Positions 48,811-64,000 of a stretch of 64,000 nucleotides of DNA are shown piece after piece; the first letter of the stretch is position 1, and every line of letters starts with the position of its first letter. Source of the DNA: Actinomycetota bacterium (GTDB lineage Bacteria > Actinomycetota > Actinomycetes > Streptosporangiales > Streptosporangiaceae); the NCBI GenBank assembly GCA_027313705.1, contig DAHVDE010000041.1, positions 62,001 through 126,000 on the forward strand, read 5' to 3'. The translations under genes and the position numbers were made by a program. The notes below the pieces were generated by a model that was not told the DNA's origin, ran no database searches, and was given only the letters and a program-made list of their open reading frames with translations.

Positions 48811-48983
48811 TCTTTCTCCTCGTTGCGAGCTGACCGCGGCGGGTGCCTCGTACCACCGGGCCGGCACTGATATGGCTATGACACAACGAACAAAGAATGC
48901 TGTAAATGCCACTCGTATGTCAATTACTGTAAATCGTTCTTAACAGCACTGGCCTTTCTGTTCCGCAGCGGATCCCTGGCCGC

Positions 48984-49508
48984 TCAGATGAAGAGCGTGA
49001 TGTCCGCCTTCGCCGCCATGTCGATGAAGCTGGCCGCGCCGAGCGTCGGCTGCAGGCCGTCGATGAAGTCTTCAGGGCTCAACCCGTACAGGTCCATGGT
49101 CATCTGGCACGGGTGCAGCCGCACCCCGCATTCAAGAGCCATCTCGAGCAGTTCGGTCGGACTGGCGACCTTGTACTGCTTGGCCAGTTTCCTGATCATC
49201 CAGGTGCCCATCCCGGCGAAGTGGATCTTGCCGAGCTTGAGGTGATCCGTGCCGCCGCGGTCGACGAAGGACTCGCCCTTTTGCATCCAGTTCTTGCCGG
49301 TGAAGCGCTTGTTGTTCTTCTGGAGCACCCGCAGGCCCCAGAACGTGAAGAACACGTCGACCTCCAGTCCCGAGGCCGCGCCGGTGGTGGCCAGGATCAG
49401 CGTTGGCCACACCTTGTCCAGGTCGTTGCTCCAGCAGATCATGGCCAGGCGCTTGACGCTCTCGTCGGCCATGGCCTGCTGGGCGGCGGAGATGTCGGTG
49501 GTCTGCAT
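48984..49508 (-). CDS. dsrE3A: DsrE3A-like sulfurtransferase, last gene of the sHdr operon
   Basis: A 174-residue DsrE/DsrF-superfamily protein. The core holds RLAMICWSNDLDKVWPTLIL (Cys25), LEVDVFFTFWGLRVL, and the C-terminal ALECGVRLHPCQMTMDLYG with Cys127 and Cys134, candidates for a persulfide carrier. DsrE3A proteins accompany sHdr genes and move sulfane sulfur, usually with TusA and rhodanese, none of which is seen here. A ribosome site (AGGAGAG) precedes ATG 49508; the gap to the LbpA-like gene upstream is 24 bp. Confidence 0.8.
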   Translation of the reverse strand: MQTTDISAAQQAMADESVKRLAMICWSNDLDKVWPTLILATTGAASGLEVDVFFTFWGLRVLQKNNKRFTGKNWMQKGESFVDRGGTDHLKLGKIHFAGMGTWMIRKLAKQYKVASPTELLEMALECGVRLHPCQMTMDLYGLSPEDFIDGLQPTLGAASFIDMAAKADITLFI

Positions 49509-49532
49509 GACGGTCTCTCCTTCTGTGATGGT

Positions 49533-49988
49533 TCAGTCGGCACAGCGAAAACAGCGGATTCCGCGCTCGTCGATGAGCTCGCGGTAGGCCGCGAAGGCGG
49601 TCTGCCCGTCGACGAGATGATGCTGCTCCCCGGCCAGGTCGGCGGGGCGCAGCCGGGCCAGCCAGCCCGCTCCGTACGGGTCACGGTTGGCCACGGCGAT
49701 GTCGGCGGCGAACGCCGCCTCGTTGACCTCGAGCAGTTCGCCGGTGAGCGGCGAAGGAAAGGGGCCGACCCACTTGGCGCTCTCGATGACCGCAAGCGAC
49801 TTGCCGCGAACGTAGCTGCGGCCGGTCCGCTTCCAGCTCACCTGGACCATCCGCCCGCCCATGGTCTGGGCGACATCGGTCATGCCAAGCTCGGCGACGC
49901 CGCCTGCCAGGCGGACCCACACGTTCAGCCCGACGTCGTAAAGCAGGTCATCAGGTACCACGCAGCCATACCAGTGCAGGTCGGCCAT
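49533..49988 (-). CDS. lbpA: Lipoate-binding protein, LbpA-like (GcvH fold), copy 1
   Basis: A 151-residue GcvH-like lipoyl protein. The lipoylation site is VIESAKWVGPFPSPLTGE with Lys72 between two strands; PLTGELLEVNEA and NRDPYGAGWLARLRP follow as in H proteins. No gcvT or gcvP is near, and it sits between a DsrE3A-like and a second LbpA-like gene, so it belongs to the sHdr system, where such proteins carry the sulfur substrate on lipoate. The C-terminus RCFRC adds two Cys not typical of GcvH. Confidence 0.82.
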   Translation of the reverse strand: MADLHWYGCVVPDDLLYDVGLNVWVRLAGGVAELGMTDVAQTMGGRMVQVSWKRTGRSYVRGKSLAVIESAKWVGPFPSPLTGELLEVNEAAFAADIAVANRDPYGAGWLARLRPADLAGEQHHLVDGQTAFAAYRELIDERGIRCFRCAD

Positions 49989-49994
49989 CAGGGG

Positions 49995-50432
49995 TCACCC
50001 GCCGCAGGCGATACCTTCCGAGTCGAGGAACGCACGGTATGCCTCGACGCCGTCGGGGCCGGTGGCGAGGTCGGCGACCTCGCCGTCCCAGTCGGTCGGC
50101 CGCAGCCTCGCCACCCAGCCGGCGCCGTAAGGGTCGGTGTTCATCAGGCCAGGTGACGTCTCGAGCGCGGCGTTGACCGCCACGATCTCGCCGGTGACCG
50201 GCGCGGGCACCGGTCCCACCCACTTGCCACTCTCGACGGTGGCGATGTTGCGGCCGCGGGCAATCGCCTTGCCCGGCTTCTTGAGCGTGACCGCGATGAT
50301 GGACTTCGCCAGGTTCTGCGCGACGTCCGTCATCCCGACCGTCACCAGGTCGCCTTCCCTGCGCGCCCACACATGCTTATCGATCACGTACAGCAGGTCC
50401 TCGGGAATATTGCAGTTGTTGACCAGGGTCAC
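49995..50432 (-). CDS. lbpA: Lipoate-binding protein, LbpA-like (GcvH fold), copy 2
   Basis: A 145-residue lipoyl protein from GTG 50432 (AGGAGA upstream; a longer frame is open but has no better start). Lipoylation site TVESGKWVGPVPAPVTGE, Lys70. Then NTDPYGAGWVARLRPTDWD. It is similar to the neighbouring copy 1 (49533-49988), 6 bp downstream, and looks like a tandem duplicate. Cys residues occur near both ends (NNCNIP, GIACGG). Confidence 0.82.
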   Translation of the reverse strand: MTLVNNCNIPEDLLYVIDKHVWARREGDLVTVGMTDVAQNLAKSIIAVTLKKPGKAIARGRNIATVESGKWVGPVPAPVTGEIVAVNAALETSPGLMNTDPYGAGWVARLRPTDWDGEVADLATGPDGVEAYRAFLDSEGIACGG

Positions 50433-50436
50433 CGCG

Positions 50437-50757
50437 TCAGTCTCCTGTCCCCTGATGTTCAGGCGCTTGTAGTTCAGGCTGGTCGCCTGCCAGCACCTCG
50501 TGCTCGGCCAGCAGGTGATGGACGAGCATGTCGAGTGCCACCATCGCGATCTGGCGGCCGAAGCCCTCGATGAACTCGCGATCCCTGGCCGCCTTGCGGA
50601 CCAGGTGCTCGTACCTGGCACCGCACAGCGGGCAGGTGATCTCGTAGAAGAACCGGTCGTTGCGCTCCACGGTGGCGACCTCGCCAGCGTGGAGCTCGCC
50701 GAGATGGGCGTGCAGCGCCCGCGGGCCTGCCTCGAGCTCGCACCACGGGCACCGCAC
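50437..50757 (-). CDS. Small Cys/His-rich (zinc-finger-like) protein of the sHdr operon
   Basis: A 106-residue protein: MRCPWCELEAGPRALHAHLG has two Cys and two His in a C2H2-like order, ITCPLCGARYEHLVRKAARD adds a Cys pair, and FGRQIAMVALDMLVHHLLAEH has further His. Probably a metal-binding structural protein or a small chaperone. I do not recognise the family. It lies between the EMO-like gene (12 bp) and LbpA copy 2 (4 bp), so co-expression is certain in principle. Confidence 0.6.
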   Translation of the reverse strand: MRCPWCELEAGPRALHAHLGELHAGEVATVERNDRFFYEITCPLCGARYEHLVRKAARDREFIEGFGRQIAMVALDMLVHHLLAEHEVLAGDQPELQAPEHQGTGD

Positions 50758-50769
50758 GCCTGCCTCCCC

Positions 50770-52755
50770 TCAGACCGTCTCGAGCGCTGCCACCTGGCGC
50801 CTGGCCAGGTCGACAAGCTGGACGAGGTCGATGACGGTGATCTTGTCCTCGTTGCCCGTCGTTTTCACCGCGTCGGTGTACATGACGAAGTCCTTCGGGC
50901 AGGCCACGACGAAATGATCGACGCCGAGCGCGACGGCCTCGCGGATCCTGTTCTCGCTCGGACGCTCGGTCTGGGCCGGCTCGGTCATCCAGATCCGGCC
51001 GCCGCCCGCACCGCAACAGAAGGTGTTCAGCCCGTTCCTCGGCATCTCCACCAGTTCGCAGCCCAGCTTGGCGAGTACCTGCCTGGGCGGATCGGTCAGC
51101 CGGTTGTGCCTGGCGAGATAGCAGGGGTCGTGGTAGGTGACCCGCAGGCTCAGCGGCTGTACGGCGATGGCGCCTTCGGTCAGCAGCCTGCCGAGCAGCT
51201 GAGAGTAATGCAGTACCGGCTTGTCGAGGCCGAACGCCGGGTACTCGTTGCGCAGCGTGTTGAACGTGTGCGGGTCGGTGGTGAAGATCTCCTCGAAGGT
51301 GGCGGCGCGCAGGGACTCCATGTTCTGCTCGGCCAGCATCTGGAACAGGCCTTCCTCGCCGATCCTGCGCACGTCGTTGCCGTCGTCGCGCTCGCCGTCG
51401 AAGAGCATCCCGAAATCGACGCCAGCCTCGCGCAGGATTCTGGCCAGGCTGCGGGAGAGCTCCTGGAGCCGCTCGTCGAACGAGGCGAAGTCGCCGACGA
51501 ACCACAGCGACCTCACGGGTTCTTTCCGCGCGTCCTTGACGGGGAAGTCGAGTCCCTTCGTCCACCGAGCGCGCATCCGGCCGGACTTGCCGAAGGTATT
51601 GCCCTGTGCGGCGTCATTCTGCAGCACTTGCTGCACGGCTGGCTCTAGCTCGCCGGAGTCGACAAGCTGCCTGCGCAGGTGCACGATCGTGTCGACGTGC
51701 TCGATGTCGACCGGGCACTGCTCGACGCAGGCACCGCAGGTCGTGCAGGACCACAGCACGTCCCTGCCGATGACCGCCGCGCCGTCGCCCGCCGCCGGGG
51801 AATGGCCGGCGGCGTCAAGCAGCCCGTCGCGCAGACCCATGATCAGCAGCTTGGGCGAGAGCGGCTGGCCGCTGTTCCACGCCGGGCAGGCGGACTGGCA
51901 CCGGCCGCACTCGGTACAGGTGAGTGTGTCCAGCCGCTGTTTCCAGGTCAGCAGCTCAAGCTGCGGCGTCCCCGCCTCGCTCACGGCGGGAAGCTCGCCC
52001 AGCGCGCCGAGCGCGCGCGGGCGCCTGGAGAACGCGACGTTCAGCGGCGCCATCACGATGTGCAGGTGCTTGGAGTAGGTGACGAAGACACCGAACCCCA
52101 TGATCACGGCCAGGTTCGCCAGCAGCAGCACCGTCTCGATCACGGAGTTCGCGCCGGTGCCCAGTGACCGCAGCGGCGCGGCGAGCGCATAGGAGGCGAA
52201 CGCCGCCCGGCCGTAGGGGAAGTCGCCGGTGTTGACCTGGGCCGCGCGGTAGCCGAGCAGCGTGATCATCACCAGCGCGATCATCCCGAGCGTGAGCCAC
52301 GCGGCCGTCGTGTGCGACCCGTAGAACCGCGACGCCTTGCCGCGCCGTCGCGGCGACTCGACCAGCCTCGTCACGGTGAAGACCGCCAGCCCGGCAAGCA
52401 CGATGACGGTGAAGAGGTCCTCGACGAGGCCGAGCAGCCAGAAGTGCCCGATCAGCGGGATCGCGAACTTCCTGCTGACGAAGGTGTCGCCGAGCGCCTC
52501 GATGATGGTGAACAGCAAGATCAGGAAACCCCAGAACACCAGGGCGTGCGGCGCTCCCGACCGCCAGCGCTTGAACAGCTTGCGCTGGCCGAGCACCTCG
52601 GCAAGCTCCGCGCTCACCCTGGCTGGCACGCCTGCCAGGCGGCCAGGAGCTGGCTGGCCTGCCCGGACCAGGCGAGCCAGCCAGCTCAGCCGCGCGCCTG
52701 CCAGCCCGAGCCCGGCGAGCATGATCAGCCCGCCGATCACCAGCCGCGGTGTCAC
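50770..52755 (-). CDS. emo: Membrane FeS oxidoreductase, EMO-like (Etf:menaquinone oxidoreductase)
   Basis: A 661-residue protein. The N-terminal ~230 residues hold about six membrane helices of the nitrate-reductase-gamma type with His residues for heme (SGAPHALVFWGFLILLF, LIGHFWLLGLVEDLFT). Then a ferredoxin-like pair: CTECGRCQSACPAW and CTTCGACVEQCPVD, and a C-terminal HdrD-like part with YHDPCYLARHN and FCCGAGGGRIWM. This is the architecture of EMO proteins that pass electrons from EtfAB to menaquinone. It overlaps etfA by ATGA, which strongly supports that role here. Confidence 0.85.
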   Translation of the reverse strand: MTPRLVIGGLIMLAGLGLAGARLSWLARLVRAGQPAPGRLAGVPARVSAELAEVLGQRKLFKRWRSGAPHALVFWGFLILLFTIIEALGDTFVSRKFAIPLIGHFWLLGLVEDLFTVIVLAGLAVFTVTRLVESPRRRGKASRFYGSHTTAAWLTLGMIALVMITLLGYRAAQVNTGDFPYGRAAFASYALAAPLRSLGTGANSVIETVLLLANLAVIMGFGVFVTYSKHLHIVMAPLNVAFSRRPRALGALGELPAVSEAGTPQLELLTWKQRLDTLTCTECGRCQSACPAWNSGQPLSPKLLIMGLRDGLLDAAGHSPAAGDGAAVIGRDVLWSCTTCGACVEQCPVDIEHVDTIVHLRRQLVDSGELEPAVQQVLQNDAAQGNTFGKSGRMRARWTKGLDFPVKDARKEPVRSLWFVGDFASFDERLQELSRSLARILREAGVDFGMLFDGERDDGNDVRRIGEEGLFQMLAEQNMESLRAATFEEIFTTDPHTFNTLRNEYPAFGLDKPVLHYSQLLGRLLTEGAIAVQPLSLRVTYHDPCYLARHNRLTDPPRQVLAKLGCELVEMPRNGLNTFCCGAGGGRIWMTEPAQTERPSENRIREAVALGVDHFVVACPKDFVMYTDAVKTTGNEDKITVIDLVQLVDLARRQVAALETV

Positions 52756-53714: not shown

Positions 53715-53719
53715 CACAC

Positions 53720-54493
53720 TTATCCTTTCACCAGGCCGCGGTCACGGAGCAGGCCCGCGATCGCCTCGGCCACATCGTCGGCACTGCCGGTCAGCATCTG
53801 CGCGTGGCTGGTCTGCTCGGGCCGGTACATCCGGCGCACCGCCGGCGCCTGCCCGGCAGGCGCCGGCTCGGCGGCCACCTCGCGAACGCCGCCCGCCTGC
53901 ATGGCCTGCCTGATCCTGGTGATCGGCGCATAGCGCGGTGCCTGCCTCGCCGCCTGGATGCCGACCACGGCAGGGAGCCTGACCGCGAGCTCGTGCACCC
54001 GGCCGCCCGCGAACTCCTGCCGCACGGTGACCCCGTCTGCCGTGGCCACGACGCCGACCACGACGGAGACGTGCGGCTGGCGCAGGTAGGCGGCGAGCAT
54101 CGGCGGAAGCTGCCCGTCCAGGTCATCGCTGGCCTGGACTCCGGTGATCACCAGGTCGGCGGGCTCGGTCGCCAGGTAACCGGCAAGCAGGGCAGCCCGG
54201 TCGCTGGTCAGCACAGAATCGGCGGCGCCGCCTGTGAGCCGCACCGCGGCGTCCGCTCCCTTGGCGATCGCGGTGTAGAGCGCCTGGTCGATGTCGGGGT
54301 CGCTGGCCAGGCCGACGGCGACGACCTCGGCACCGCAGGCGTCCTTGACGAGCAGTGCTTCCTCTAGCGCCTGCGCATCCCACTCGCTGACCACGAACTT
54401 GAGGAACTCACGGTCGATGTCGGTCTCGTCGGAGGTGAGCTCGATCTCCTCCACGAGGTCGGGTACTGCCTTGATCGGCACAACTATTCGCAC
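53720..54493 (-). CDS. etfB: Electron transfer flavoprotein beta subunit
   Basis: A 257-residue EtfB starting at GTG 54493: RIVVPIKAVPDLVEEIELTS, then FVVSEWDAQALEEALLVKD, and ITGVQASDDLDGQLPPMLAA of the AMP/FAD-binding region. Forms a heterodimer with EtfA (5 bp downstream). In this operon the likely donor is the sHdr complex or dihydrolipoate on the LbpAs (inference). Confidence 0.92.
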   Translation of the reverse strand: MRIVVPIKAVPDLVEEIELTSDETDIDREFLKFVVSEWDAQALEEALLVKDACGAEVVAVGLASDPDIDQALYTAIAKGADAAVRLTGGAADSVLTSDRAALLAGYLATEPADLVITGVQASDDLDGQLPPMLAAYLRQPHVSVVVGVVATADGVTVRQEFAGGRVHELAVRLPAVVGIQAARQAPRYAPITRIRQAMQAGGVREVAAEPAPAGQAPAVRRMYRPEQTSHAQMLTGSADDVAEAIAGLLRDRGLVKG

Positions 54494-54507
54494 AGGCCCT
54501 GCCTTAT

Positions 54508-55578
54508 CTATCCGAGAACTTCGTCAAGCCGCAACTGCGCCTTGATCTGGTCAAGGTCAGTCGCGGCCGGGGGGAAGGGGTAGTCACGGAACGGCTCTGA
54601 CGGCCGGTAGGAACCGTAGGGCCTGGTGCAGCCTGGTTCGCCTTGCTCGCCAGGGCAGCCGTTGGTCATGAAGGCGACGCCCTGGCTCACCACCGCGTCG
54701 ACCGCGGACCTGCTGGCCCGCAGGTGGACCAGGCTGCCGTCGGCGTCGAAGTCGAACTGGCCGGCCTGGTAACCCTCGGTCTCGATCAAGTGCTTAGCGA
54801 GCTGGATCCGCCGCCAGCGCATCAGCGGCGACTTGGGGTGGCTGGCCATCCGCGAATCCGGCTCGGGATTGAAGCAGAAGAGATAGGAGAAGATCTGCTG
54901 GTCGCGCAGCCTGGTGAAGATCTCGATCAGGTCCTGGTCGGTCTCGCCGAGGCCCACCAGGGTGTGCACGTTGACCTTCCACGGGCCGAAGATCTCCCTG
55001 GAGTCGGTGACGACCTCCCAGTACTTCTCCCACTTCAGCCCGCCGGCCGGGACGTCGGTGCGGATGCTGCGGAACAACTGCTCGGTGACCGCGTCGAGGC
55101 CGATCCCGATCATGTCCACGCCGATCGCCTTGAAGGTCTCGAGCCGGTGCCTGTTCAAGGTCGGCGGCGCGACCAGGATGGAAAGCGGTGTCTTCACCCG
55201 GGCGGCGATCCGCTTGGTGATATCGCAGGTGTCGGCGTAGGCGTGGCCGTGCGTGACCATCGAGATGCACAGCCTGGTGAGCTTGTCCTCGTGCTCGGCC
55301 ATCCGGTCGACCAGTTCGCCGGTGCGCACTAGCGGCCATTCCACCCGGATGAACTGGTCGCCGTAGTCGGCCTGCCTGGTTCTGGCCAGGCCGCAGTAGC
55401 CGCAGTCGGACAGGCAGCCCTCGTCGTAGTTCAGTAGCAGGTTGATGCCGCCGAAGTCGAACTCCCGGCTGAAGCGTCCAGACTTCATCGCCAGCGCCAC
55501 CGCGCTGGCGTAGGAAATGCGGACGTAGTCTGGGCTGATCTTCGCGGGACTGCCGAGCACGGGGAGCAACGCGGTCAC
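54508..55578 (-). CDS. lipS1: LipS1-like radical SAM lipoyl synthase component
   Basis: A 356-residue radical SAM enzyme. The SAM-binding cluster motif is CLSDCGYC (Cys55, Cys59, Cys62). A C-terminal cysteine pair, MTNGCPGEQGEPGCTRPYG, would hold the auxiliary cluster. LipS1 and LipS2 together insert the two sulfurs into octanoyl groups in the lipoate assembly route associated with sHdr systems. Overlaps the ligase gene upstream by ATGA. Confidence 0.82.
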   Translation of the reverse strand: MTALLPVLGSPAKISPDYVRISYASAVALAMKSGRFSREFDFGGINLLLNYDEGCLSDCGYCGLARTRQADYGDQFIRVEWPLVRTGELVDRMAEHEDKLTRLCISMVTHGHAYADTCDITKRIAARVKTPLSILVAPPTLNRHRLETFKAIGVDMIGIGLDAVTEQLFRSIRTDVPAGGLKWEKYWEVVTDSREIFGPWKVNVHTLVGLGETDQDLIEIFTRLRDQQIFSYLFCFNPEPDSRMASHPKSPLMRWRRIQLAKHLIETEGYQAGQFDFDADGSLVHLRASRSAVDAVVSQGVAFMTNGCPGEQGEPGCTRPYGSYRPSEPFRDYPFPPAATDLDQIKAQLRLDEVLG

Positions 55579-56738
55579 TGGTGCCTCACTGTCGGTTCAG
55601 GGAAGTAGCAGGAGCCTTCAGAGCGCGCCGGGGCGGCGGCCAGTCGGTCAACGGCCTGGTGTCCGGCGTGCAGTACCGCCGCCACTAGCTGGTCGGCAGG
55701 CACGGCCAGGGCGCCGGCCGCGCCGGTGCGCGCCACGACGGCGGCGACCGATCGGTCGTCGAGCCGGTGCCAGCGCAGCGCCGCTTCCATGTCGGCAACG
55801 GCGGGCGGCAGGTCGTTGAAGTCACCGACGACGATGGCGTTCTTGACCAGGTCGCCGTGGGTGGTGAGGTAGATGCGGGCCAGGCCGGCCGGGGTCTTCA
55901 GCGCGGCCGAGCCGCTGCCGTCGAGCGCCGCGCTGCGATCGGCGAGCCAGGACATGCTCGCATAGCGAGCGGTGGCGAGTTCGCCTGCCGCCGTCAGTTC
56001 GGCAGCGCTCGGCTGCGCCGGCTCCAGGTCCGCGCCGAAGGTCTTGGCGAAGCCGGCCTCGATGACCGGGCGCAGGGCAGGGCCGTCCCACCGAACGCCG
56101 GTGAGCGCGGTCAGCGTGGTCACCCGCTCGGCTACGGCTGCCGCTGCCTTGTCCGCGAGCTTGGCCGCAGGGATCCGCAGCGCGCGGAGCATGAAATCGA
56201 TGTCAAGATCGGCAAGCACGCTGGCGTGGAAGAGCAGCGCCCCTGACTGGTCGAGATACAGGCCGAGACCCGCGATTTTCCTGCCATTAACCTCGAGGTC
56301 GTTCTTGCCCTTGAATACGGCGGTGATACCAAGTCCGGCCAGGCCGGTGATCAGCGCGGCAGCCAGGTCCTCGATGATCTCGCGCGGGCGCCTGCCTGAC
56401 GGGGCGGCGGCGGTCAGCGCCACGCCAAGCTGGCCGGCCCCCATGATGATCGCGCCGCCGCCGGTGGGCCTGCGGCTGACCTGCGTTCCTGTTTCGCGGC
56501 AGGCGTCCAGGTCGACCTCGGCTTCCAGGTTCTGATAGCGGCCGATCAGCGCGCAGTGGGTGCGGTAGGTATACAGCCTGAGCGTCGGGGCGGCCGGCTG
56601 CTCGCCGCGCGCATACCGCGCCATCAGCGCCTCGTCCACGGCCAGGCCGCCGGCCGCGGCGGCGCCGTCGTCGGCGATCAGCCGCCAGGGCACCGCTGCC
56701 TGGCCGGCCGGATTGAGCCAGCCGCCGGTGCCGCTCAC
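55575..56738 (-). CDS. Lipoate:protein ligase, sLpl(AB)-like
   Basis: A 387-residue ligase. Core motifs: QVSRRPTGGGAIIMGAGQLG (RRxxGGG, ~residues 87-106) and DLEVNGRKIAGLGLYLDQSG with the conserved Lys. The C-terminal third (LKTPAGLARIYLTTHGDLVK) corresponds to an LplB-like accessory domain, so A and B parts are fused. It would attach octanoate or lipoate to the LbpA proteins. It lies between LipS2-like and LipS1-like genes with 4-nt overlaps on both sides. Confidence 0.82.
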   Translation of the reverse strand: MSGTGGWLNPAGQAAVPWRLIADDGAAAAGGLAVDEALMARYARGEQPAAPTLRLYTYRTHCALIGRYQNLEAEVDLDACRETGTQVSRRPTGGGAIIMGAGQLGVALTAAAPSGRRPREIIEDLAAALITGLAGLGITAVFKGKNDLEVNGRKIAGLGLYLDQSGALLFHASVLADLDIDFMLRALRIPAAKLADKAAAAVAERVTTLTALTGVRWDGPALRPVIEAGFAKTFGADLEPAQPSAAELTAAGELATARYASMSWLADRSAALDGSGSAALKTPAGLARIYLTTHGDLVKNAIVVGDFNDLPPAVADMEAALRWHRLDDRSVAAVVARTGAAGALAVPADQLVAAVLHAGHQAVDRLAAAPARSEGSCYFPEPTVRHQ

Positions 56739-57736
56739 TGGCCCACCTCGACCTTCGCGTATCCCGCTTCGCCTTCGCCGGTCCAGGTCAGCGAGCAGCA
56801 GTACTCGAACAGGCGCGGGGTCAGGCCGCGGGCCTCGGCGTAGGCGATCGCGCCGTCCGCCGGATAGGCGATGCCGTTGAGCCCGAGGTCGATCGCCGCC
56901 TGGTCAAGCTCGGTCTTGGCGGCCCCGAGCGGCCGGGCGCAGCCCAGGTTGACCGGAGTGGCCGGGGCGGCCAGCCTGGCGTCCGCGAAGAAGCCGGCGA
57001 CCTGGTCGGTGGGTGGCGGCGGTATATGCGCCATGGGAGTGCCGGACAGCGGGGTCAGCACCACCAGGATGAGCGTGGACACCGGGTAGCGGGTCAGCAT
57101 CTCCAGCGCACGGTGCTCGCCGAGGAACTGGCCGTAGTGCAGCCCGAGCACGATGTGCGGGATGATCCGCAGGCCCTGCGCCGACAGCAGGGCCAGCGAG
57201 CGTTCCATGTCGGCGACGGTCAGGTCCAGGTGGTAGACGTCGCGGAGCGTCTCGTCGGCGCCGATGATGTCGAGCATCACGCCGTCTACGCCCGCCTGCG
57301 CCAAGCCGGCGGCCAGCCTCGGCGAGACGACGCCAGAGTGCACGATGACCTTCATGCCAAGCTCTGATTTGATCCGCGGCACGTGCCTCAGGTGCGGAAG
57401 CAGCGGCACCTCGCCTGTCCTGGTGGAGCCACCTGAGACCAGCAGCCCTTCGCTACCCTGGGCGCGGAGCCTGCTGGCGAGGTCGAACAGGTCCAGGCCG
57501 GCCCGCACCGAGATCATGCCGTCGAGCACCTTGGTCTGGCAGTGGTCGCAGGACAGCGCGCAGGCCGAGCCGGTGACCGACACCGGCAGGAAGCGGCGCG
57601 GGTTCTGCGGCGTCCACTCCGGTGTTTGCCACCGCTTGAGACCTGGCGCGTAGAAGTCCATCACGTCGGGGAAGTTCGCCCGCCGCACCGCCGATGGCGA
57701 GCCTGGGGCAGGCGCTGTCGTCAGGTCGGCACTCAC
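56735..57736 (-). CDS. lipS2: LipS2-like radical SAM lipoyl synthase component
   Basis: A 333-residue radical SAM protein. Cluster motif CALSCDHCQ (Cys59, Cys63, Cys66), then GLLVSGGSTRTGEVPLLP and IVLGLHYGQFLGEH. Cys residues late in the chain (LGCARPLGAAKTELDQAA and EYCCSLTW) may bind a second cluster. Partner of LipS1. Overlaps the LbpA-like gene upstream and the ligase downstream (ATGA). Confidence 0.82.
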   Translation of the reverse strand: MSADLTTAPAPGSPSAVRRANFPDVMDFYAPGLKRWQTPEWTPQNPRRFLPVSVTGSACALSCDHCQTKVLDGMISVRAGLDLFDLASRLRAQGSEGLLVSGGSTRTGEVPLLPHLRHVPRIKSELGMKVIVHSGVVSPRLAAGLAQAGVDGVMLDIIGADETLRDVYHLDLTVADMERSLALLSAQGLRIIPHIVLGLHYGQFLGEHRALEMLTRYPVSTLILVVLTPLSGTPMAHIPPPPTDQVAGFFADARLAAPATPVNLGCARPLGAAKTELDQAAIDLGLNGIAYPADGAIAYAEARGLTPRLFEYCCSLTWTGEGEAGYAKVEVGQ

Positions 57737-58194
57737 CGGGCGATCGCTCCCGACAGGCGATAGTCCGCGATCCTGGCGGCATACCAGTCGGTGATCGCTT
57801 GCGGATCGGTAAGCAGTTTCCCGAGATCGGCAGGGTCAGACAGGATGGCCTTGATCAGCCAGCCCGCGGTGAACGGCTCTCTTTCCACCAGGCCTGGATC
57901 GGCCGCCGCCGCCGCGTTGACAGCGCGGACAGTGCCAGACACCGGGCTGGTCAGCGGACCCACGAACTTCACCGCCTCAAGCTGGCCGAACGGCTGGCCG
58001 GCGATCAATACCTGGCCTGGCTCAGGCAGCGATAGCTGCGCGAGCGTGCCGCTCGTCTCGACGCCGAGCGGGTCCATCCCGATCGTGACGTGCAGGTCAC
58101 CTGTCGGCCTGACCCACATGTGGGTGGCCGGGGCGTAGGCACGGTCGAGCGCGATCGCGAAACCGCTGACCTCGCGGAGCGCGTCGTCGGTCAT
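57733..58194 (-). CDS. lbpA: Lipoate-binding protein, LbpA-like (GcvH fold), copy 3
   Basis: A 153-residue lipoyl protein from ATG 58194. Lipoylation site FGQLEAVKFVGPLTSPVSG, Lys76; then VSGTVRAVNAA and EREPFTAGWLIKAILSD. It is more divergent than copies 1 and 2 (no Cys pairs, LEAVKF instead of ESxKW) and sits in the lipoate-assembly part of the operon. It could serve as an assembly scaffold for the two radical SAM enzymes rather than as the sulfur carrier (inference). Confidence 0.82.
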   Translation of the reverse strand: MTDDALREVSGFAIALDRAYAPATHMWVRPTGDLHVTIGMDPLGVETSGTLAQLSLPEPGQVLIAGQPFGQLEAVKFVGPLTSPVSGTVRAVNAAAAADPGLVEREPFTAGWLIKAILSDPADLGKLLTDPQAITDWYAARIADYRLSGAIAR

Positions 58195-59207
58195 CACAAT
58201 CTCCCTTCTGCCCCGGCGAGCACCGCCGCGAGCAGGCGCCCGCTCTCGCCGAGCGTGCTGAGCGTCCCGGCGGCGCGGGCGACGGTCATTCCGGTGAGCG
58301 GACGCGCAGCCTCGTGCGGCTGGCCGCCGCGTGCCGTCAGCACCACCCGGTCCACGATGCCCTTGACCACGCTCGCGACGAGCCTGGCGCCGTCGGGTGC
58401 CTGGGCGGCGAGCGTCCAGATCCCGGCGCGCACCTTGACCAGCCGCCGCTGCGGGCCGGTGGTTGCCGTCCGGCGCGGGCCCGCCAGCCACTGCGCCGAG
58501 CTGAAGCGCAGGTCAAGCTCGGCGGTCCGCTCCCGCTCGGCGGCCGAGATCTCACCTGGCACGGCCCGCCGCCCGAGCGCGGCTGAGCAGGCCGCGGCCA
58601 GCGCCTGCATGAAAGCCTGCGGATCGCCTGGCGTCGCCGTGACATAGCGCCGCATCAGCCGCAGGGTCTCGGCCCGCTGGAGCGGATCGGGCATCGCGAG
58701 CACCCTGGTCGCCCGCTCGTGGTCGAACTCCTCGATCAGGTTGCCGCAGACGACGACGGCGTCCTCGATCTGCCCGGCGCCGTGGCCGCAGATCTTGCGG
58801 TCGCCCAGGCAGATCTCGCCGTCCTGGTCAAGCCCGGCGTCGACCCCAGCCGCACGGAAGGCGGCGACGGCCGGCTCGAGCATCCCGCGCAGCGCCGCCG
58901 CGCGGGACGGCGAGACCTCGTTGGCCGGGAGGCAGAGCTGGAAGAACAACTGCCTGTCGTCGAGGTAGACCGGGCCGCCGCCGACCATCCGCCGGTACAC
59001 GGGCAGCCCGCTGGCGCGGCAGTACTCCTGGTCGATCTCGGCAGCGTCACGCAGGTAACCAAGGCACGCGTAAGGAGCCGACGGCCGCGCAAACGACAGA
59101 GTAGGCGGCTGGCCCGCGCTGACCCCGTAGGCGACCGCGTGCCACAGGGTCTGCGAGCGCAGCGGCGTCACCCGCCCGAAGTCGATCACCCGCAGCATTT
59201 CGCTCAC
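58194..59207 (-). CDS. Second lipoate:protein ligase-like enzyme
   Basis: A 337-residue LplA-superfamily protein. PVYRRMVGGGPVYLDDRQLF (RRxxGGG) and GDRKICGHGAGQIEDAVVV carry the ligase motifs, with the conserved Lys in DRKICG. C-terminal domain ~100 residues. It is not a close copy of the sLpl(AB)-like gene at 55575. Its stop overlaps the LbpA-like copy 3 start (TGATG), so it may be dedicated to that protein. Confidence 0.78.
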   Translation of the reverse strand: MSEMLRVIDFGRVTPLRSQTLWHAVAYGVSAGQPPTLSFARPSAPYACLGYLRDAAEIDQEYCRASGLPVYRRMVGGGPVYLDDRQLFFQLCLPANEVSPSRAAALRGMLEPAVAAFRAAGVDAGLDQDGEICLGDRKICGHGAGQIEDAVVVCGNLIEEFDHERATRVLAMPDPLQRAETLRLMRRYVTATPGDPQAFMQALAAACSAALGRRAVPGEISAAERERTAELDLRFSSAQWLAGPRRTATTGPQRRLVKVRAGIWTLAAQAPDGARLVASVVKGIVDRVVLTARGGQPHEAARPLTGMTVARAAGTLSTLGESGRLLAAVLAGAEGRL

Positions 59208-60505
59208 GTGGCCAGGCCCATCGCCTCGTCGATCAGCTCGATGATGTCCTTCACGACGAGCTGATCGTTGCCGGTGGACTTGGCGGCGTCCTCGAACCTG
59301 CTGACCTCGTAAGGGCAGCAGACGACGAGCACGTTCGCGCCGGTCGCGGCGGCCTCCCTGACCCTGCGCTCCGACAGCCGCTCGGCGGCGTGGTTCTTCG
59401 CGAAGCCGTCAAGCCACATGCCGCCACCGCCGCCGCCGCAGCAGTAGCCGTTCTCGCGGCACCGGCCCATCTCGACCAGTTCCACGCCAGGGATGGCGTT
59501 GATCAGCGTGCGCGGCGCGTCGTACTCGCCGTTGTGCCTGCCGAGGTAACAAGGGTCGTGGAAGGTGACCCGCAGGTTCAGCTCCCTGGCCCAGGTGATC
59601 TGGCCGGCCAGCGGGGAAAGCAACTGGGTGTAGTGCAGGACGTCGAACTCGTGCCCGCGCTTGGGGTACTCCTTGACCAGCGCGTTGAAGGCGTGCGGGT
59701 CGGGGGTCACGATCCGCGCGAACTCGTACTTGGCCAGGGTCGCGGTCACGTCCTCCACCAGCGAGTCGAACAGGCCCTGCTCGCCGGCCAGGCGCTGGGA
59801 GTCGCCGACCGTCTTCTCCTCGTGGCCGAGGATGGCGAAGTCCACCCCGAGCGCGGTCGCGACCCGCGCGAACGCCTGCGCCGCCTGCTGACCGCGGGGG
59901 TGGTAGCTCCAGTAGTCCTCGACGTAGAAGAGCACGTCTACCGGCGACGGGTCACTTGGCAGCAGCCGGACGGGTACCCCGGCGCCCCTGGTCCACTGGG
60001 CGCGGCGGCGCGCGTTCTCGCCGAGCGCGTTGCCGTACCTGAACGTCTTCTCGAACACGTCCTGCAACTCAGAAGGTACCGGCGCTCCCTGGGTAAGCGC
60101 GGCTTCCCTGACGGCCGGCATGATCTGGATCATGTCGACTTCCTTGGGGCACACCCGCAGGCAGTTGCCGCAGGTGGTGCAGAGCCACAGGTCGTCATCG
60201 GTCAGCAGGTCGATGCCGGTCTGCACCTTGCGGTGCAGCTTGCGCGGGCCGTACTCGCCGACCAGGTCAACCGGGCACACCGGCACGCACTTGCCGCAGC
60301 CGTAACACCACTCGAGCGACTCACCGCCAGGCAGCGCCGAGATCGGCTCGAATCCGTCCGGGCCTGTCTCGGTCAGCACCCGAGGCTCGAACATCCGGTT
60401 CCACATCGCCGGCAGCTCGACCTCGCGGCCCGAGATCGGGGAAGCGACTGTCGCCGATTCCAGTTCGACGGCGCGCGGCGGGACCTTACGCCCTCCGATG
60501 GGCAT
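59204..60505 (-). CDS. HdrC2-HdrB2-like fusion (HdrD-type FeS protein)
   Basis: A 433-residue protein that joins an HdrC-like and an HdrB-like part. N-terminal [4Fe-4S] motifs: CYGCGKCVPVCP (Cys67, 70, 73, 77) and CTTCGNCLRVCP (Cys109, 112, 115, 119). The C-terminal half has VTFHDPCYLGRHNGEYDAP, ENGYCCGGGGGGMW and VVCCPYEVSRFED, a CCG-type domain. In described sHdr sets, C2 and B2 are separate genes after A and hyp; here one gene takes that position. It overlaps the hyp gene by 20 bp and the ligase gene by 4 nt. Confidence 0.82.
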   Translation of the reverse strand: MPIGGRKVPPRAVELESATVASPISGREVELPAMWNRMFEPRVLTETGPDGFEPISALPGGESLEWCYGCGKCVPVCPVDLVGEYGPRKLHRKVQTGIDLLTDDDLWLCTTCGNCLRVCPKEVDMIQIMPAVREAALTQGAPVPSELQDVFEKTFRYGNALGENARRRAQWTRGAGVPVRLLPSDPSPVDVLFYVEDYWSYHPRGQQAAQAFARVATALGVDFAILGHEEKTVGDSQRLAGEQGLFDSLVEDVTATLAKYEFARIVTPDPHAFNALVKEYPKRGHEFDVLHYTQLLSPLAGQITWARELNLRVTFHDPCYLGRHNGEYDAPRTLINAIPGVELVEMGRCRENGYCCGGGGGGMWLDGFAKNHAAERLSERRVREAAATGANVLVVCCPYEVSRFEDAAKSTGNDQLVVKDIIELIDEAMGLAT

Positions 60506-61265
60506 CGCTGGCCTCCAGGTAATAAATGCCGAGCAAGCGGCGCATGAGGTCGGGCAGCTTAGGCACGAGCTCGTTGAACTCCCGTGTCATTCGCATCCGA
60601 AGGACGGTGTACATGTAGACGCCGTAAACGGCGGCAAGAAAGATGTCGGTGCCGAAGAGACCAGGCGCCGCGTCGGTGAAGCCGGCCGCCTTCCCTGTCT
60701 CGTTCACGAAGGCGGTCGCCCGGCCGATGCTCAGGTAGACGTCGCCGACGCTGCCGCCGACGGCCATGCCCGCGGACAGCCCGGCGGAGAGCGACGGCAT
60801 GGTCTCGTCGGTGGTGACCAGGCCGAGCGAGCCCGTCTGAGTCTCCGGATCCCAGATCCACCTGGTCCACAGCCAGTACCTGTCCGGATAGGTGAAGTGG
60901 AGCAGTTCGGCTGGCAGGTCGAATCCCGGCGCAGGCGAGCCGGCGAGCACGGCGGCGAACCGGTCGAAGCGCGCCGCCAGGTCCTGGTCGTGGTCAAGCA
61001 GCCCCGTGATCGCGGCCGCCAGCCGCACGGGGCCGACGGCGGCCAGGATCGCCGCCGCCTTCCTGCGGGTCGTGAAGGTCAGCCGCAGCAGGGCCGTGAG
61101 CGCTGCCTCGTCGGGCGGCGCTCCCCCGGCCAGCAGGTCGCGCATCGCCGATGACTTGCGTTGCAGGCCATCGGCGATGGCCGCCAGGTCAGGCACCGTG
61201 ATCCGGTCAAGGATCTCGCGGCGGAACTCCTGGGCGCTGAGCGTGTCGACGACGGGGTCGGCCAT
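60486..61265 (-). CDS. Conserved unknown protein between HdrA and HdrC2B2 (sHdr 'hyp' position)
   Basis: A 259-residue soluble, mostly helical protein. Landmarks: LPAELLHFTYPDRYWLWTRW, with an aromatic cluster WLWTRWIWDPETQTGSLGLV, and a C-terminal VPKLPDLMRRLLGIYYLEAS. No Cys or clear cofactor motif is visible. sHdr clusters are known to include a hypothetical gene in this slot (C1-B1-A-hyp-C2-B2); position argues for the same protein, sequence identity I cannot test. A ribosome site (GGAG) is weak. Confidence 0.65.
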   Translation of the reverse strand: MADPVVDTLSAQEFRREILDRITVPDLAAIADGLQRKSSAMRDLLAGGAPPDEAALTALLRLTFTTRRKAAAILAAVGPVRLAAAITGLLDHDQDLAARFDRFAAVLAGSPAPGFDLPAELLHFTYPDRYWLWTRWIWDPETQTGSLGLVTTDETMPSLSAGLSAGMAVGGSVGDVYLSIGRATAFVNETGKAAGFTDAAPGLFGTDIFLAAVYGVYMYTVLRMRMTREFNELVPKLPDLMRRLLGIYYLEASDAHRRA

Positions 61266-61280
61266 GGCGGGTCGGCTCGG

Positions 61281-62345
61281 TCAGCCCGCCGCCGCAGCGG
61301 CGCGCGAGCGCAGGAAGGCGAATGCCTTCATGGCGGCGGCCGCCCCGGACGACACCGAGTCCTCGAGGTCCGCGGGACCGAGCGCGGCACCGCAGGCGAA
61401 CACCCCGTCCCTGCTGGTCGAGACCGTGTCAAGCGGGGAGCCTACCGCGTCGACGAAACCGTACTTGTTCTGGGCCGCGCCGCACATCACGGCCGTCTGC
61501 CTGGTCCCCGGCGATGCTTCCATGCCGACCGAGAGCACCACGAGGTCCATCTCAAGCTCCATCGGCCTGCCCATCGTGGTGTCCTCGCCGCGCACCAGCA
61601 GCCGGTCGCCCTTGCCGAGTACCTCGCTGATGATGCCCTTGACGTACTGGACGTGGTGCTTTTCCTGGGCCGGCCAGTAGATCTGGTTCTCCCAGTAGCC
61701 GTACATCCGCATGTCGATGTAGAAGATGTAGACCTTGGAGTCCGGCAGCAGTTGCCTGACCTCGATCGCCTCCTTGGACGCGACGCCGCAGCAGACCTTG
61801 GAGCAGTACTCGTTGCCGATGTGCCTGTCCCTGCTGCCCACGCACTGGATGAAGCAGACCCGCTGCGGCGGCTGGCCGTTCGACGGCCGCACCACCTGGT
61901 GGTCGGACAGCATGCCTTCCAGGTCGGACAGGGTGATCACGTCGGGGAACTCGTAGTACCCGTACATCTGGGTCTCGCGGCCAGGGTCGAAGTGCGAGAA
62001 CCCGGTGGCGATGATGATGGCGCCGCACTCGGCCCGCTGCTCGCCTTCCTGGCCGCGCAGCGTGAGGGTGAAGGCGCCTGGCTCGCCGTCCACGGCCGTC
62101 ATGACCGTGCCGGTGCGCACGTCCACGTCCTGGTGCGCCGTCACCGCCGCGATCATCGCCTCGATCTGCGGCCTGGCAGGCTCGCCGTGCGGGGTCAGGC
62201 CGGCGTACCGCTCGGCGATCGGCGTGCCGCCAAGGAAGTCACGCTGCTCGAGCAGCAGTACCTTGCCGCCGATCTCCGCCACGCCGTGCGCGGCGCGCAG
62301 GCCTGCCGGGCCGCCGCCGATCACGGCCACAGTGTCGAAGGACAT
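61281..62345 (-). CDS. shdrA: sHdrA-like flavoprotein
   Basis: A 354-residue HdrA-type flavoprotein. FAD-binding GGGPAGLRAAHGVAEIG at the N-terminus, and a cysteine block CFIQCVGSRDRHIGNEYC...VCC (Cys164, 168, 181, 185, 186) for a [4Fe-4S] cluster. It is short, as in sHdrA, lacking the extra ferredoxin modules of methanogen HdrA. It would take electrons from the substrate site of B/C subunits to FAD, possibly to NAD+ or Etf. It follows HdrB1 after 62 bp. Confidence 0.85.
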   Translation of the reverse strand: MSFDTVAVIGGGPAGLRAAHGVAEIGGKVLLLEQRDFLGGTPIAERYAGLTPHGEPARPQIEAMIAAVTAHQDVDVRTGTVMTAVDGEPGAFTLTLRGQEGEQRAECGAIIIATGFSHFDPGRETQMYGYYEFPDVITLSDLEGMLSDHQVVRPSNGQPPQRVCFIQCVGSRDRHIGNEYCSKVCCGVASKEAIEVRQLLPDSKVYIFYIDMRMYGYWENQIYWPAQEKHHVQYVKGIISEVLGKGDRLLVRGEDTTMGRPMELEMDLVVLSVGMEASPGTRQTAVMCGAAQNKYGFVDAVGSPLDTVSTSRDGVFACGAALGPADLEDSVSSGAAAAMKAFAFLRSRAAAAAG

Positions 62346-62407
62346 CCATCACCTCACGTGCTGAAGGCGGGCGCCGACCGAGCGGCGCCGCGCTGGCCTG
62401 GTAGTTC

Positions 62408-63601
62408 TCACGAATCGACGTCGTCCCAGTCGAGGTAGCGTTTCTCGCCGCTTTCCAGCCGCTTGATGTCGGCCTGGAACTCCGCCCACGCCTGCTCGTG
62501 GTCGATGCCCATCTTTTCCAGCAGCGGCCGGTAGTCGGCCGAGTGCCAGTGCAACTGGCAGACCTTGTAGGGGTGGGCACCCATCGCGAGCGCGGCGAAC
62601 TGCGCGTCGCTGAGGACGGCGACTCCGACGTTGCGGTCGTGGGCCTTGGCCGCGAACTGGCTCTTGTCCAAGGTGGTGACGCAGCCGGTGTCGTGCGTGA
62701 GCACGACGTCGGGGTCGGCCTCCTCCTTCATCACCTCGATCTTGCGCAGCGTGGCGAAGGACCTGGTGAAGTCGCGCTGCACCAGGATGTGCCTGAATCC
62801 GAAGCCGCAGCAGTCGAACCAGGTCGAGTAGCTGCGCACCTCGGCGCCGAGCGCCTGGGCGAGGCCGGTCACCACCGCGGTCCGCTGGCCGCCGTAGATC
62901 TCCGGGTCGTAAAGCGCGTCACCCTCGACGAGCTTGTAATAGTGGCAGGCGGGATGCACGGTGACGACGACGTTCGACACGTCGCGCACCTGCTTGGCGG
63001 CGATCTCGTGCCGCAGCGCGAAGAACCACTCGGAGTAATGGATGATCTCCTCGGGCAGTACGAGTTGCTTGCCGAGCCTGGCCATGATGCCGCGCACCTC
63101 GGCCCGCAGCTCAGGGTGCCTGATCAGTTCCTCCCTGACCTCCTTGTAGTGGCCGTAGGAGGTGCCGCAGTGAATGAGCGGAAAGTAGCCGGTCTGCTCT
63201 GCCGCGGCGAAGTTGCGCACAGCGACCGCCGCCTGGGCCGCGGCGTTGGACGTCGCGCTTGCGTAGTAGTTCCAGGCCGTGCACGAGGTCTGGTCCTGCG
63301 GGTCGTGGTAGTCGTAGCCGAGCTTGCGCATCACCCAGAAGATGGAGGTGGAATAGCCGGGGATGTGGCCGCACTGGCCGCAGGACTTGTGGTGCCACAG
63401 GTGCGACTTCTGGATCCGCTTCTCGCGGCCGTACTTGGTCGTCATCGCCATGGCCTCGCGGTCCATCTTCTGCACCACGAGCTCGCCCTGCGCCTCGAGC
63501 GCGAGCAGCTCGGCGCGCGGGTCCTCAAGGGCACGGCGGTCAGCGCCGCGCTCGAAGTGCTCTTTCTTCCGAAGCAGGGCCTCTACCGGAATCGTGGTCA
63601 T
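62408..63601 (-). CDS. shdrB1: sHdrB1-like catalytic FeS subunit
   Basis: A 397-residue HdrB-type protein. Cys sites: HHKSCGQCGHIPG (Cys74, Cys77), DQTSCTAW (Cys107), PLIHCGTSYG (Cys145), VVTVHPACHYYKL, STWFDCCGFGFRH and LTHDTGCVTTLDK. These match the CCG-domain pattern (CxnCCx..C) that binds a noncubane-type cluster in HdrB. In sHdr it handles the persulfide or disulfide on lipoate. ATGA overlap with HdrC1 upstream. Confidence 0.85.
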   Translation of the reverse strand: MTTIPVEALLRKKEHFERGADRRALEDPRAELLALEAQGELVVQKMDREAMAMTTKYGREKRIQKSHLWHHKSCGQCGHIPGYSTSIFWVMRKLGYDYHDPQDQTSCTAWNYYASATSNAAAQAAVAVRNFAAAEQTGYFPLIHCGTSYGHYKEVREELIRHPELRAEVRGIMARLGKQLVLPEEIIHYSEWFFALRHEIAAKQVRDVSNVVVTVHPACHYYKLVEGDALYDPEIYGGQRTAVVTGLAQALGAEVRSYSTWFDCCGFGFRHILVQRDFTRSFATLRKIEVMKEEADPDVVLTHDTGCVTTLDKSQFAAKAHDRNVGVAVLSDAQFAALAMGAHPYKVCQLHWHSADYRPLLEKMGIDHEQAWAEFQADIKRLESGEKRYLDWDDVDS

Positions 63602-64000
63602 GGCTCGATCCCTTCCTCTTCAAGGCGCTCCTCCATGACCTCCTGGAGGATGGCGTGCAAGCTGGGGTCGACGCCGGAGATCATGTCCAGGGCGCCGGTG
63701 TGCAGCCAGATCAGGTACAGCTCGATCAGGGTCGAGTCGGCGACCTTCCAGCCTGTGCTCGTGGTGTGCAGGGTCTCCGGCGGCAGTGCGCGCCGCCACA
63801 GGTCCAGGTTGGCCGAGACGTCGGCGGTCTCAGGTCCCCAGTCGGGGAACGCGTCCTGCTGCAGCATGTCCGGTGACACCTGGGTGCCGGTGGACATGAT
63901 CTTGTAGATGATCCGGGAGTAGCCGACCAGCGCTTCCTTGGCCGAGGCGAGGCCGTTGTTGATGGCCACCTCGCGCATGATCGTGATGATCCCGCCCGGG
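63598..64000 (-). CDS. shdrC1: sHdrC1-like ferredoxin subunit (C-terminal part, runs off the right edge)
   Basis: The last ~133 residues of an HdrC-type protein: GGIITIMREVAINNGLASAK, EALVGYSRIIYKIMSTG, VSPDMLQQDAFPDWG and a C-terminal acidic EVMEERLEEEGIEP. This is the helical tail that follows two [4Fe-4S] ferredoxin motifs in HdrC; those lie beyond 64000. It overlaps HdrB1 by ATGA. The operon promoter must be to the right of the window. Confidence 0.8.
   Translation of the reverse strand, partial: PGGIITIMREVAINNGLASAKEALVGYSRIIYKIMSTGTQVSPDMLQQDAFPDWGPETADVSANLDLWRRALPPETLHTTSTGWKVADSTLIELYLIWLHTGALDMISGVDPSLHAILQEVMEERLEEEGIEP

What the first reader, a model, noticed from the sequence alone, without database searches (positions are those of the whole stretch)
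48984..64000. A 17-gene, gapless actinobacterial sHdr operon
All genes from HdrC1 to DsrE3A run on the minus strand with mostly 4-nt overlaps or gaps under 65 bp. The set unites sHdr subunits (C1, B1, A, hyp, C2B2), lipoate-binding proteins, a complete lipoate-assembly toolkit, EtfAB with an EMO-like membrane protein, and a DsrE3A-like protein. Known sHdr systems oxidise sulfane sulfur carried on a lipoyl protein. A single operon with all modules in a high-GC actinomycete would imply lithotrophic or organosulfur-derived sulfur oxidation in a lineage better known for soil heterotrophy.
Basis: partly seen in the sequence, partly recalled or inferred. Interest (0 to 1): 0.9.

Follow-up and report, generated by a model that had tools for sequence, protein, structure and literature searches.

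The report
Actinobacterial sulfur-oxidation (type II sHdr) operon
An actinobacterium carries, in one run of 19 genes, a known kind of machine thought to oxidise sulfur atoms for energy, together with the tools that make its lipoic-acid arm; one of its three lipoic-acid carrier proteins looks more like an assembly bench than a working part.

Summary
Seventeen near-gapless minus-strand genes lie where stated; the window edge cuts HdrC1, and two more genes (DsrE-like, TusA) precede it: a 19-gene operon. This arrangement is already in print for Actinobacteria and Firmicutes (eLife 2018 'Group III'), and a 19-gene Thermomicrobium cluster has similar content, so the operon is a new member of a known kind. 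Cultured Gordonia, Amycolatopsis, Conexibacter and Ferrithrix carry relatives. Lithotrophy is not shown; no SoxZ was found.

One point I did not meet in the papers searched: the three lipoyl proteins are of two kinds. LbpA2 and LbpA3 carry the lysine and two cysteines of sHdr LbpAs. LbpA1, inside the lplI-lbpA1-lipS1-lplII-lipS2 block, keeps the lysine but lacks both cysteines (0 of 32 sequences have both), forms its own weakly supported clade, and occurs with LipS1 rather than with sHdr as such. I propose it is the scaffold on which lipoate is built before LbpA2/3 receive it; the transfer step is speculative. Peat Acidimicrobiia carry sHdr genes nested among actinomycete ones, suggesting transfer between classes.

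The parts
63598..64000 (-). sHdrC1 (cut by window edge; full gene 63598-64311 in window numbering)
   Evidence: Fer4 dicluster, HdrC models below cut-off; synteny
62408..63601 (-). sHdrB1, proposed catalytic subunit (CCG domain)
   Evidence: PF02754 43.6 bits over cut-off; 66-93% identical relatives in the 80 named loci kept
61281..62345 (-). sHdrA flavoprotein
   Evidence: 6tjr E 1.1e-85
60486..61265 (-). hyp (sHdrH): all-helical, no family model
   Evidence: no Pfam/NCBIfam match at E<=0.001; model pLDDT 90.3, no PDB fold match at E<=0.001
59204..60505 (-). sHdrB3 (fused C2-B2: Fer4 dicluster + CCG)
58194..59207 (-). LplI: divergent lipoate-ligase-fold protein with a further C-terminal domain
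   Evidence: PF21948 75.7 bits; K138 invariant; catalytic part nearest archaeal LplA 2c7i/3r07, Z 25.1
57733..58197 (-). LbpA1: GcvH-like lipoyl protein with the Lys but without cysteines
   Evidence: PF01597 82 bits; 0 of 32 sequences, window's included, have both Cys
56735..57736 (-). LipS1 radical-SAM lipoyl synthase
   Evidence: NF053742 216 bits, best family, below cut-off 230
55575..56738 (-). LplII: lipoate-protein ligase
   Evidence: PF21948 126.7 bits over cut-off; 2ars E 8.5e-21
54508..55578 (-). LipS2 radical-SAM lipoyl synthase
   Evidence: NF053743 201 bits, best family, below cut-off 270
53720..54493 (-). EtfB
   Evidence: PF01012 76.3 bits
52752..53717 (-). EtfA
   Evidence: PF00766 105 bits
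50770..52755 (-). EMO/EtfD-like membrane Fe-S protein (ETF to menaquinone)
   Evidence: PDB 9ojn E 4.6e-141; that code occurs once in the text of the mycobacterial EtfD paper
50437..50757 (-). 106-aa Cys/His-rich (zinc-finger-like) protein of unknown role
   Evidence: Cys and His positions conserved in 22 sequences, window's included; seen in 21 of 81 loci
49995..50432 (-). LbpA2 with Lys and N- and C-terminal Cys (start at GTG 50432 preferred over TTG 50462)
49533..49988 (-). LbpA3 with Lys and N- and C-terminal Cys
48984..49508 (-). DsrE3-like sulfurtransferase (C134 conserved)
   Evidence: PF13686 147 bits; C134 in at least 95% of 35 sequences

Best explanation
A type II sHdr sulfane-sulfur-oxidising operon with its own lipoate factory. 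Shown here: the gene set, the order, conserved lipoyl lysines and sulfur-carrier cysteines, and the split of the lipoyl proteins into two kinds. Inferred from the published H. denitrificans system: TusA and the DsrE proteins hand protein-bound sulfane sulfur to LbpA2/LbpA3 (lipoyl arm plus two cysteines); the sHdrC1B1A-hyp-B3 complex oxidises it to sulfite; electrons pass to EtfAB and through the EMO/EtfD-like protein to menaquinone and the respiratory chain. My own inference, not met in the papers I searched: LplII charges the cysteine-free LbpA1 with octanoate, LipS1/LipS2 insert two sulfurs there, and LplI loads the finished lipoyl group onto LbpA2/LbpA3. I guess that the host is a heterotroph using sulfur as an extra electron donor; nothing here tests that.
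For: Cluster meets the type II definition given in PMC11582611. HdrA nearest to sHdrA 6tjr. EMO-like protein nearest to 9ojn. TusA CPxP cysteine (72 sequences) and one DsrE cysteine in each of the two DsrE proteins (76 and 35 sequences) conserved. LbpA2 30 of 31 and LbpA3 22 of 22 carry both diagnostic Cys; LbpA1 0 of 32. LipS1 is in 32 of 81 loci: LplII in 31 of 32 and 0 of the other 49; LbpA1 in 31 of 32 and 3 of 49, all three at the very end of the stretch held, one with LipS1 as next gene. In two genomes the same five-gene block lies on a contig other than that of LbpA2/3. The T. roseum cluster of similar content rises 45-fold on average in persistence (PMC6776052, passages).
Against: No expression or growth data for this organism. 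NCBIfam cut-offs for HdrA/B/C, LipS1, LipS2 and DsrE2 are not reached. LbpA2 scores 125 bits on a GcvH subfamily model with cut-off 117. LbpA1 clade support is only 0.77. 15 of the 49 loci without LipS1 show no EtfB, most being short contigs, so their lack of the block says little. LplI's fold is nearer to ATP-dependent ligases (Z 25.1) than to 2p5i (Z 18.8), which does not favour an amidotransferase. The 'LplI' of most loci without the block (14 of 20) is only 30-41% identical to it and may be another enzyme. One LbpA1 (G319) keeps an N-terminal Cys, and the Rokubacteria LipS1 has beside it a lipoyl protein without Cys in the aligned part whose best match is LbpA2. One genome has LbpA1 but no LipS1 found, on a contig that ends there.
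Confidence: 0.75

Rival explanations
1. The operon oxidises thiols or other small disulfide-forming compounds for persistence, not inorganic sulfane sulfur for energy; the Hdr core makes disulfides and passes electrons to EtfAB.
For: Proposed for the T. roseum cluster of similar content, induced in persistence (passages read); no SoxZ in the genus (no control rang there, but the query found SoxZ in 2 of 34 genomes).
Against: TusA, DsrE and two-Cys LbpA point to protein-bound sulfane sulfur; HdrA is nearest to the sulfur-oxidising sHdrA.
Confidence: 0.15
2. All three lipoyl proteins are equal working parts of sHdr; LbpA1 merely lost its cysteines.
For: It is encoded in the same operon and keeps the lipoyl lysine.
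Against: It occurs with LipS1 rather than with sHdr as such: of 22 type II carriers searched, four gave an LbpA1-type protein among the fetched loci, three with LipS1 adjacent and one on a cut contig; 18 gave none and one search found no LipS1 in those 18.
Confidence: 0.3
3. A non-sulfur Hdr/Etf electron-transfer complex misread as sHdr.
For: A related CCG membrane protein serves fatty-acid oxidation through ETF in mycobacteria (EtfD, passages); no broad Hdr tree was built here.
Against: LipS1/S2, two-Cys LbpA, TusA and DsrE lie in the same operon; sHdrA match.
Confidence: 0.04

Closest known systems
Type II sHdr clusters (PMC11582611; 'Group III' of PMC6067878)
   Same: [quoted passage not shown] already reported from Actinobacteria and Firmicutes (passages)
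   Different: here a complete lipoate-assembly block sits between B3 and EtfB, and the third lipoyl protein is cysteine-free; whether the published figures show this was not seen (figures not held)
Thermomicrobium roseum trd_0160-0142 (PMC6776052)
   Same: 19 genes: hdrABC, etfAB, tusA, two dsrE, three lbpA (passages)
   Different: sequence not compared here; different phylum; the passages seen do not name lipoate-assembly genes
Sulfobacillus hdr gene cluster II (PMC4378227)
   Same: hdr genes with etfAB and a longer 'hdrC' with six membrane helices, which I take as the counterpart of the EMO-like protein (passages)
   Different: in the Bacillota loci fetched here LbpA2, an LplI-like gene, TusA and a DsrE lie between B3 and EtfB, and LipS1 was not found in the three such genomes searched
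Type I sHdr of Hyphomicrobium denitrificans
   Same: sHdrA (6tjr), LbpA, LipS1/S2, lipoate ligase
   Different: separate C2 and B2; EtfAB is not part of the type I definition; fed through Sox, whereas no SoxZ was found here
Bacillus LipM-GcvH-LipL lipoyl relay (as described in PMC10332631, passages)
   Same: proposed analogy: a GcvH-like protein receives the acyl group before the working proteins
   Different: here LipS1/S2 and ligase-fold enzymes; the transfer step is inferred only

Membership tests
Type II sHdr | shdrC1B1AHB3 and etfAB in a single syntenic cluster | tested here: met
   definition
Type II sHdr | SoxT transporter absent | not tested
   no YeeE/SoxT search was run
Type II sHdr | oxidises sulfane sulfur to sulfite | not testable with these tools
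   needs growth or enzyme assays
sHdr LbpA (LbpA2, LbpA3) | lipoyl lysine plus one N- and one C-terminal cysteine | tested here: met
   both window proteins; 30 of 31 and 22 of 22 sequences, window's included; feature
sHdr LbpA (LbpA1) | the same two cysteines | tested here: not met
   none in the window protein; 0 of 32 have both, 5 of 32 have any Cys
GcvH (glycine cleavage) | groups with GcvH in a tree | tested here: not met
   LbpA1 (0.77) and LbpA2+3 (0.79) separate from six GcvH-family proteins of the genus (0.99); but LbpA2 exceeds the NF002270 cut-off
LipS1/LipS2 | NCBIfam equivalog cut-offs | tested here: inconclusive
   best families, but 216 against 230 and 201 against 270 bits; CxxxCxxC read in both sequences (motif recalled)
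sHdrR repressor (ArsR genes upstream) | two conserved cysteines | tested here: not met
   one Cys each; feature
LipL amidotransferase (for LplI) | nearest fold to LipL | tested here: inconclusive
   2p5i Z 18.8 against 25.1 for archaeal LplA; that 2p5i is a LipL is recalled

The most novel reading that the evidence does not exclude
LipS1/LipS2 lipoate synthesis in type II sHdr bacteria runs on a dedicated, cysteine-free GcvH-like scaffold (LbpA1, paired with LplII), and a second ligase-fold enzyme (LplI) moves the finished lipoyl group to the two-cysteine LbpA2/LbpA3: a lipoyl-relay pathway that separates where the cofactor is built from where it works. (Lowered from 0.35 to 0.3 on recheck: LplI-like genes outside the block are mostly only 30-41% identical.)
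Probability: 0.3. Interest if true: 0.65.

Novelty: new member of a known kind. Interest (0 to 1): 0.45.

Why it matters
It adds complete actinobacterial examples, with relatives in cultured Gordonia, Amycolatopsis and Conexibacter, of a pathway worked out in an alphaproteobacterium, and an electron route through an EtfD-like protein. The split of the lipoyl proteins gives a simple, testable idea of how one of several lipoyl proteins is matured, close to the remark in PMC10332631 (passage) about unknown amidotransferases that may replace LipL.

Tried and rejected
The idea that the system is new to Actinobacteria was rejected after reading passages of PMC6067878. The idea that LplI is a plain LipL homolog was weakened by the fold comparison. 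Plasmid records gave only two remote HdrA matches, so no type I or non-sulfur reference set was obtained and no broad HdrA/B tree was built. The hyp model matched no PDB fold at E<=0.001; this does not show a new fold. A first RpoB tree used wrong reading frames and was replaced. An IQ-TREE run failed on thread count and then on time; FastTree was used instead. SQR, RuBisCO, LipA/LipB and SoxT were not searched; sulfite oxidation only through PF00174. A literature search with other words for the scaffold idea brought no paper that I read further.

Rows dropped before counts: L099 and L101 (duplicates of L020 and L028) from all locus counts; lipoyl proteins under 130 aa from the Cys counts; six of 44 LplI candidates (window included) from the fold alignment, so 38 used, and 41 of 74 for hyp, so 33 used. 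The concatenated tree used 37 hand-picked taxa (36 loci and the window); L030 was dropped for a missing gene. 80 of 216 confirmed relatives were kept. The RpoB search matched 27 of 28 genomes. In one search the matches not fetched as loci (30 were fetched) were not classified.
Full report
The observation. The window is bases 62001-126000 of contig C115 of a 5.3 Mb, 118-contig genome (98.9% complete, 4.3% contamination). The window cuts the first gene. Reading on in the contig shows full-length HdrC1, then a DsrE-like gene and TusA, so the operon has 19 genes: tusA-dsrE-C1-B1-A-hyp-B3-lplI-lbpA1-lipS1-lplII-lipS2-etfB-etfA-emo-znf-lbpA2-lbpA3-dsrE3. Co-transcription is inferred from spacing only. 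Two ArsR-type genes lie upstream; each has one cysteine, so neither meets the two-cysteine rule for sHdrR (PMC12423496, passages).

Identity. Pfam assigns CCG, Fer4, LplA-B_cat, GCV_H, radical SAM, ETF and DsrE domains to the expected genes; the LipS1 frame is just under the radical SAM cut-off (28.8 against 29.5). HdrA aligns over residues 6-350 of 354 with the H. denitrificans sHdrA structure 6tjr (E 1.1e-85, sharing CVGSRD...CSxxCC), ahead of methanogen HdrA (best 6.1e-55). The NCBIfam HdrA, HdrB and HdrC equivalogs are far below their cut-offs, as I would expect if these are not methanogen enzymes. The membrane protein matches 9ojn at E 4.6e-141; that code occurs once in the text of the mycobacterial EtfD paper (PMC13083937, passages), in which EtfD carries electrons from ETF to menaquinone. 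The cluster meets the published test for type II sHdr, shdrC1B1AHB3 and etfAB in one cluster (PMC11582611, passages). [quoted passage not shown] The operon is therefore a new member of a known kind.

Distribution. In the genus, 3 of 5 genomes (own included) carry HdrB1; the two misses are 77% and 81% complete. In the class, 2 of 296 sampled genomes (own included) match at E<=1e-50. In named genomes 216 relatives were confirmed and the best 80 kept: chiefly MAGs titled Actinomycetes, Acidimicrobiia or Acidimicrobiaceae, and Chloroflexi, with Bacillota, Rokubacteria and a few others, and the cultured Amycolatopsis acididurans, Gordonia rhizosphera, Ferrithrix thermotolerans, Aciditerrimonas ferrireducens, two Conexibacter and an Oscillochloris. 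Among 81 distinct loci (these 80 and one of the genus), C1-B1-A-hyp-B3 is found in order in 72 and the five-gene lipoate block in order in 26.

Transfer between classes. In an RpoB tree (27 of 28 genomes) two peat MAGs titled Acidimicrobiaceae (bog_808, bog_536) fall with Ferrithrix and Aciditerrimonas (support 1.0). In the C1+B1+A+B3 tree (37 hand-picked taxa) the same two, with fen_548 and bog_793, nest inside the clade of the window's genus and its near relatives (support 1.0), which itself lies within the actinomycete sHdr clade (support 1.0); the exact position inside is unresolved (0.25). This fits transfer from actinomycetes to Acidimicrobiia. Mis-binned contigs remain possible, and the percentage identities alone do not prove it: another Acidimicrobiia-type genome, YP2.bin33, also has sHdr (78%) more alike to the window's than its RpoB (68%).

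The rest of the genome. TusA gives two matches, one in the operon. Rhodanese domains give 7 matches and PF00174, the sulfite-oxidase-type fold, 2. SoxZ gives none in 5 genus genomes, where no control rang; a wider search found it in 2 of 34 genomes (a Rokubacterium and a Deltaproteobacterium), so the query works, and again not here. Sulfur input is thus likely not through Sox. SQR, carbon fixation and SoxT were not searched, so lithotrophy is unproven.

Two kinds of lipoyl protein. The eLife paper describes LbpAs by a lipoyl lysine and two strictly conserved cysteines, near the N and the C terminus, some archaeal ones excepted. Counting the window's proteins and those of the loci, LbpA2 has both in 30 of 31 and LbpA3 in 22 of 22; LbpA1 has the lysine in 32 of 32 and both cysteines in 0 of 32, with any cysteine in 5 of 32. 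The lysine context differs too, mostly EAxKFVG against ESxKWVG. A tree separates LbpA1 (0.77), GcvH-family proteins of the genus (0.99) and LbpA2+LbpA3 (0.79); LbpA2 as a set is not a clade of its own, LbpA3 arising within it, and one 'LbpA2' (L027) sits beside LbpA3. The window genome has two further GcvH-family genes elsewhere.

LbpA1 occurs with the lipoate block. Of 81 distinct loci, 32 hold LipS1; LplII is in 31 of these and in 0 of the 49 others; LbpA1 in 31 and in 3 of the 49; LplI in 32 and in 20 of the 49. Of the 49, 15 show no EtfB, most being short contigs. The three odd LbpA1 loci end within that gene; for L086 the next gene is LipS1, for L064 no LipS1 was found in its genome and its contig ends there, and L045 was not searched further. 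The single LipS1 locus without LbpA1 (L098) has a partial LbpA1-like match just beyond its edge (L176). A LipS1 search of 24 further carriers matched 5, one of them L098 itself; of the 23 with no LipS1 in the fetched locus 4 have it elsewhere and 19 showed none. Of those four, two hold the same five genes together on another contig, one (Rokubacteria) has beside LipS1 a lipoyl protein nearer to LbpA2 with no cysteine in the aligned part, and one is a short contig without a lipoyl gene. In 22 carriers searched with LbpA1, profile comparison of the 30 fetched loci found LbpA1-type proteins in four, three beside LipS1 and one on the cut contig; the other 18 gave only LbpA2, LbpA3 or GcvH types. 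One of the four, G319, retains an N-terminal cysteine.

Mechanism proposed. Sulfur oxidation: TusA/DsrE to LbpA2/3 to the sHdr complex, sulfite out, electrons to EtfAB, the EMO-like protein and menaquinone (inferred from published systems). Lipoate: LplII and LipS1/S2 build lipoate on LbpA1, and LplI loads LbpA2/3 (my inference). LplI-like genes also occur where no LipS1 was found (10 of the 20 loci lie in genomes in which one search found none), but these are only 30-41% identical to the window's and may be other enzymes; another five of the 20 end at or just after the gene. LplI keeps an invariant lysine (K138) and its catalytic part folds as an archaeal-type lipoate ligase (pLDDT 95, Z 25.1); the C-terminal domain was hardly tested by that comparison. 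It may be a ligase using free lipoate rather than an amidotransferase; this is the weakest part. A genome-neighbourhood remark in PMC9585515 (passages) already notes an H protein, a lipoate ligase and Hdr-like proteins near LipS1/S2 in bacteria, without this distinction in the passages seen. I saw the cysteine split in none of the eight papers of which I read passages (PMC6067878, PMC10332631, PMC11582611, PMC6776052, PMC4378227, PMC12423496, PMC13083937, PMC9585515); the other papers listed I saw as listings only, figures and supplements not at all, and one search found no paper.

Verdict.

Noticed in passing
window 60486-61265: The conserved hyp protein of the sHdr cluster is confidently predicted as all-helical (pLDDT 90) and matched no PDB fold at E<=0.001.
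   Followed up: partly
window 50437-50757: A 106-aa protein with conserved Cys and His positions lies between EMO and LbpA2; a relative was seen in 21 of 81 loci, many of the others ending earlier; role unknown.
   Followed up: partly
L010:7447-7773 and L010:7904-8269 (minus strand, just past the window end): Two ArsR-family regulators upstream of the operon, each with a single cysteine near the N terminus; possibly a different sensing mode from sHdrR.
   Followed up: partly
L023, L024, L026, L031: Peat MAGs titled Acidimicrobiaceae whose sHdr genes nest among actinomycete ones; RpoB was checked for two of them, L023 and L031.
   Followed up: partly
L034, L036, L047, L053, L059, L061: Loci (three of them Acidimicrobiia-type by RpoB) where B3 is followed directly by EtfB, without the lipoate block; two of the six genomes have LipS1 elsewhere, four showed none.
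   Followed up: partly
G000 contigs C41, C45, C104 (L012, L014, L013): Other CCG-domain proteins of the same genome, including an 803-aa frame; not analysed.
   Followed up: no
window 47605-48912: Secreted-looking protein with RCC1-like repeats directly downstream of the operon, same strand (read from the translation; family recalled).
   Followed up: no
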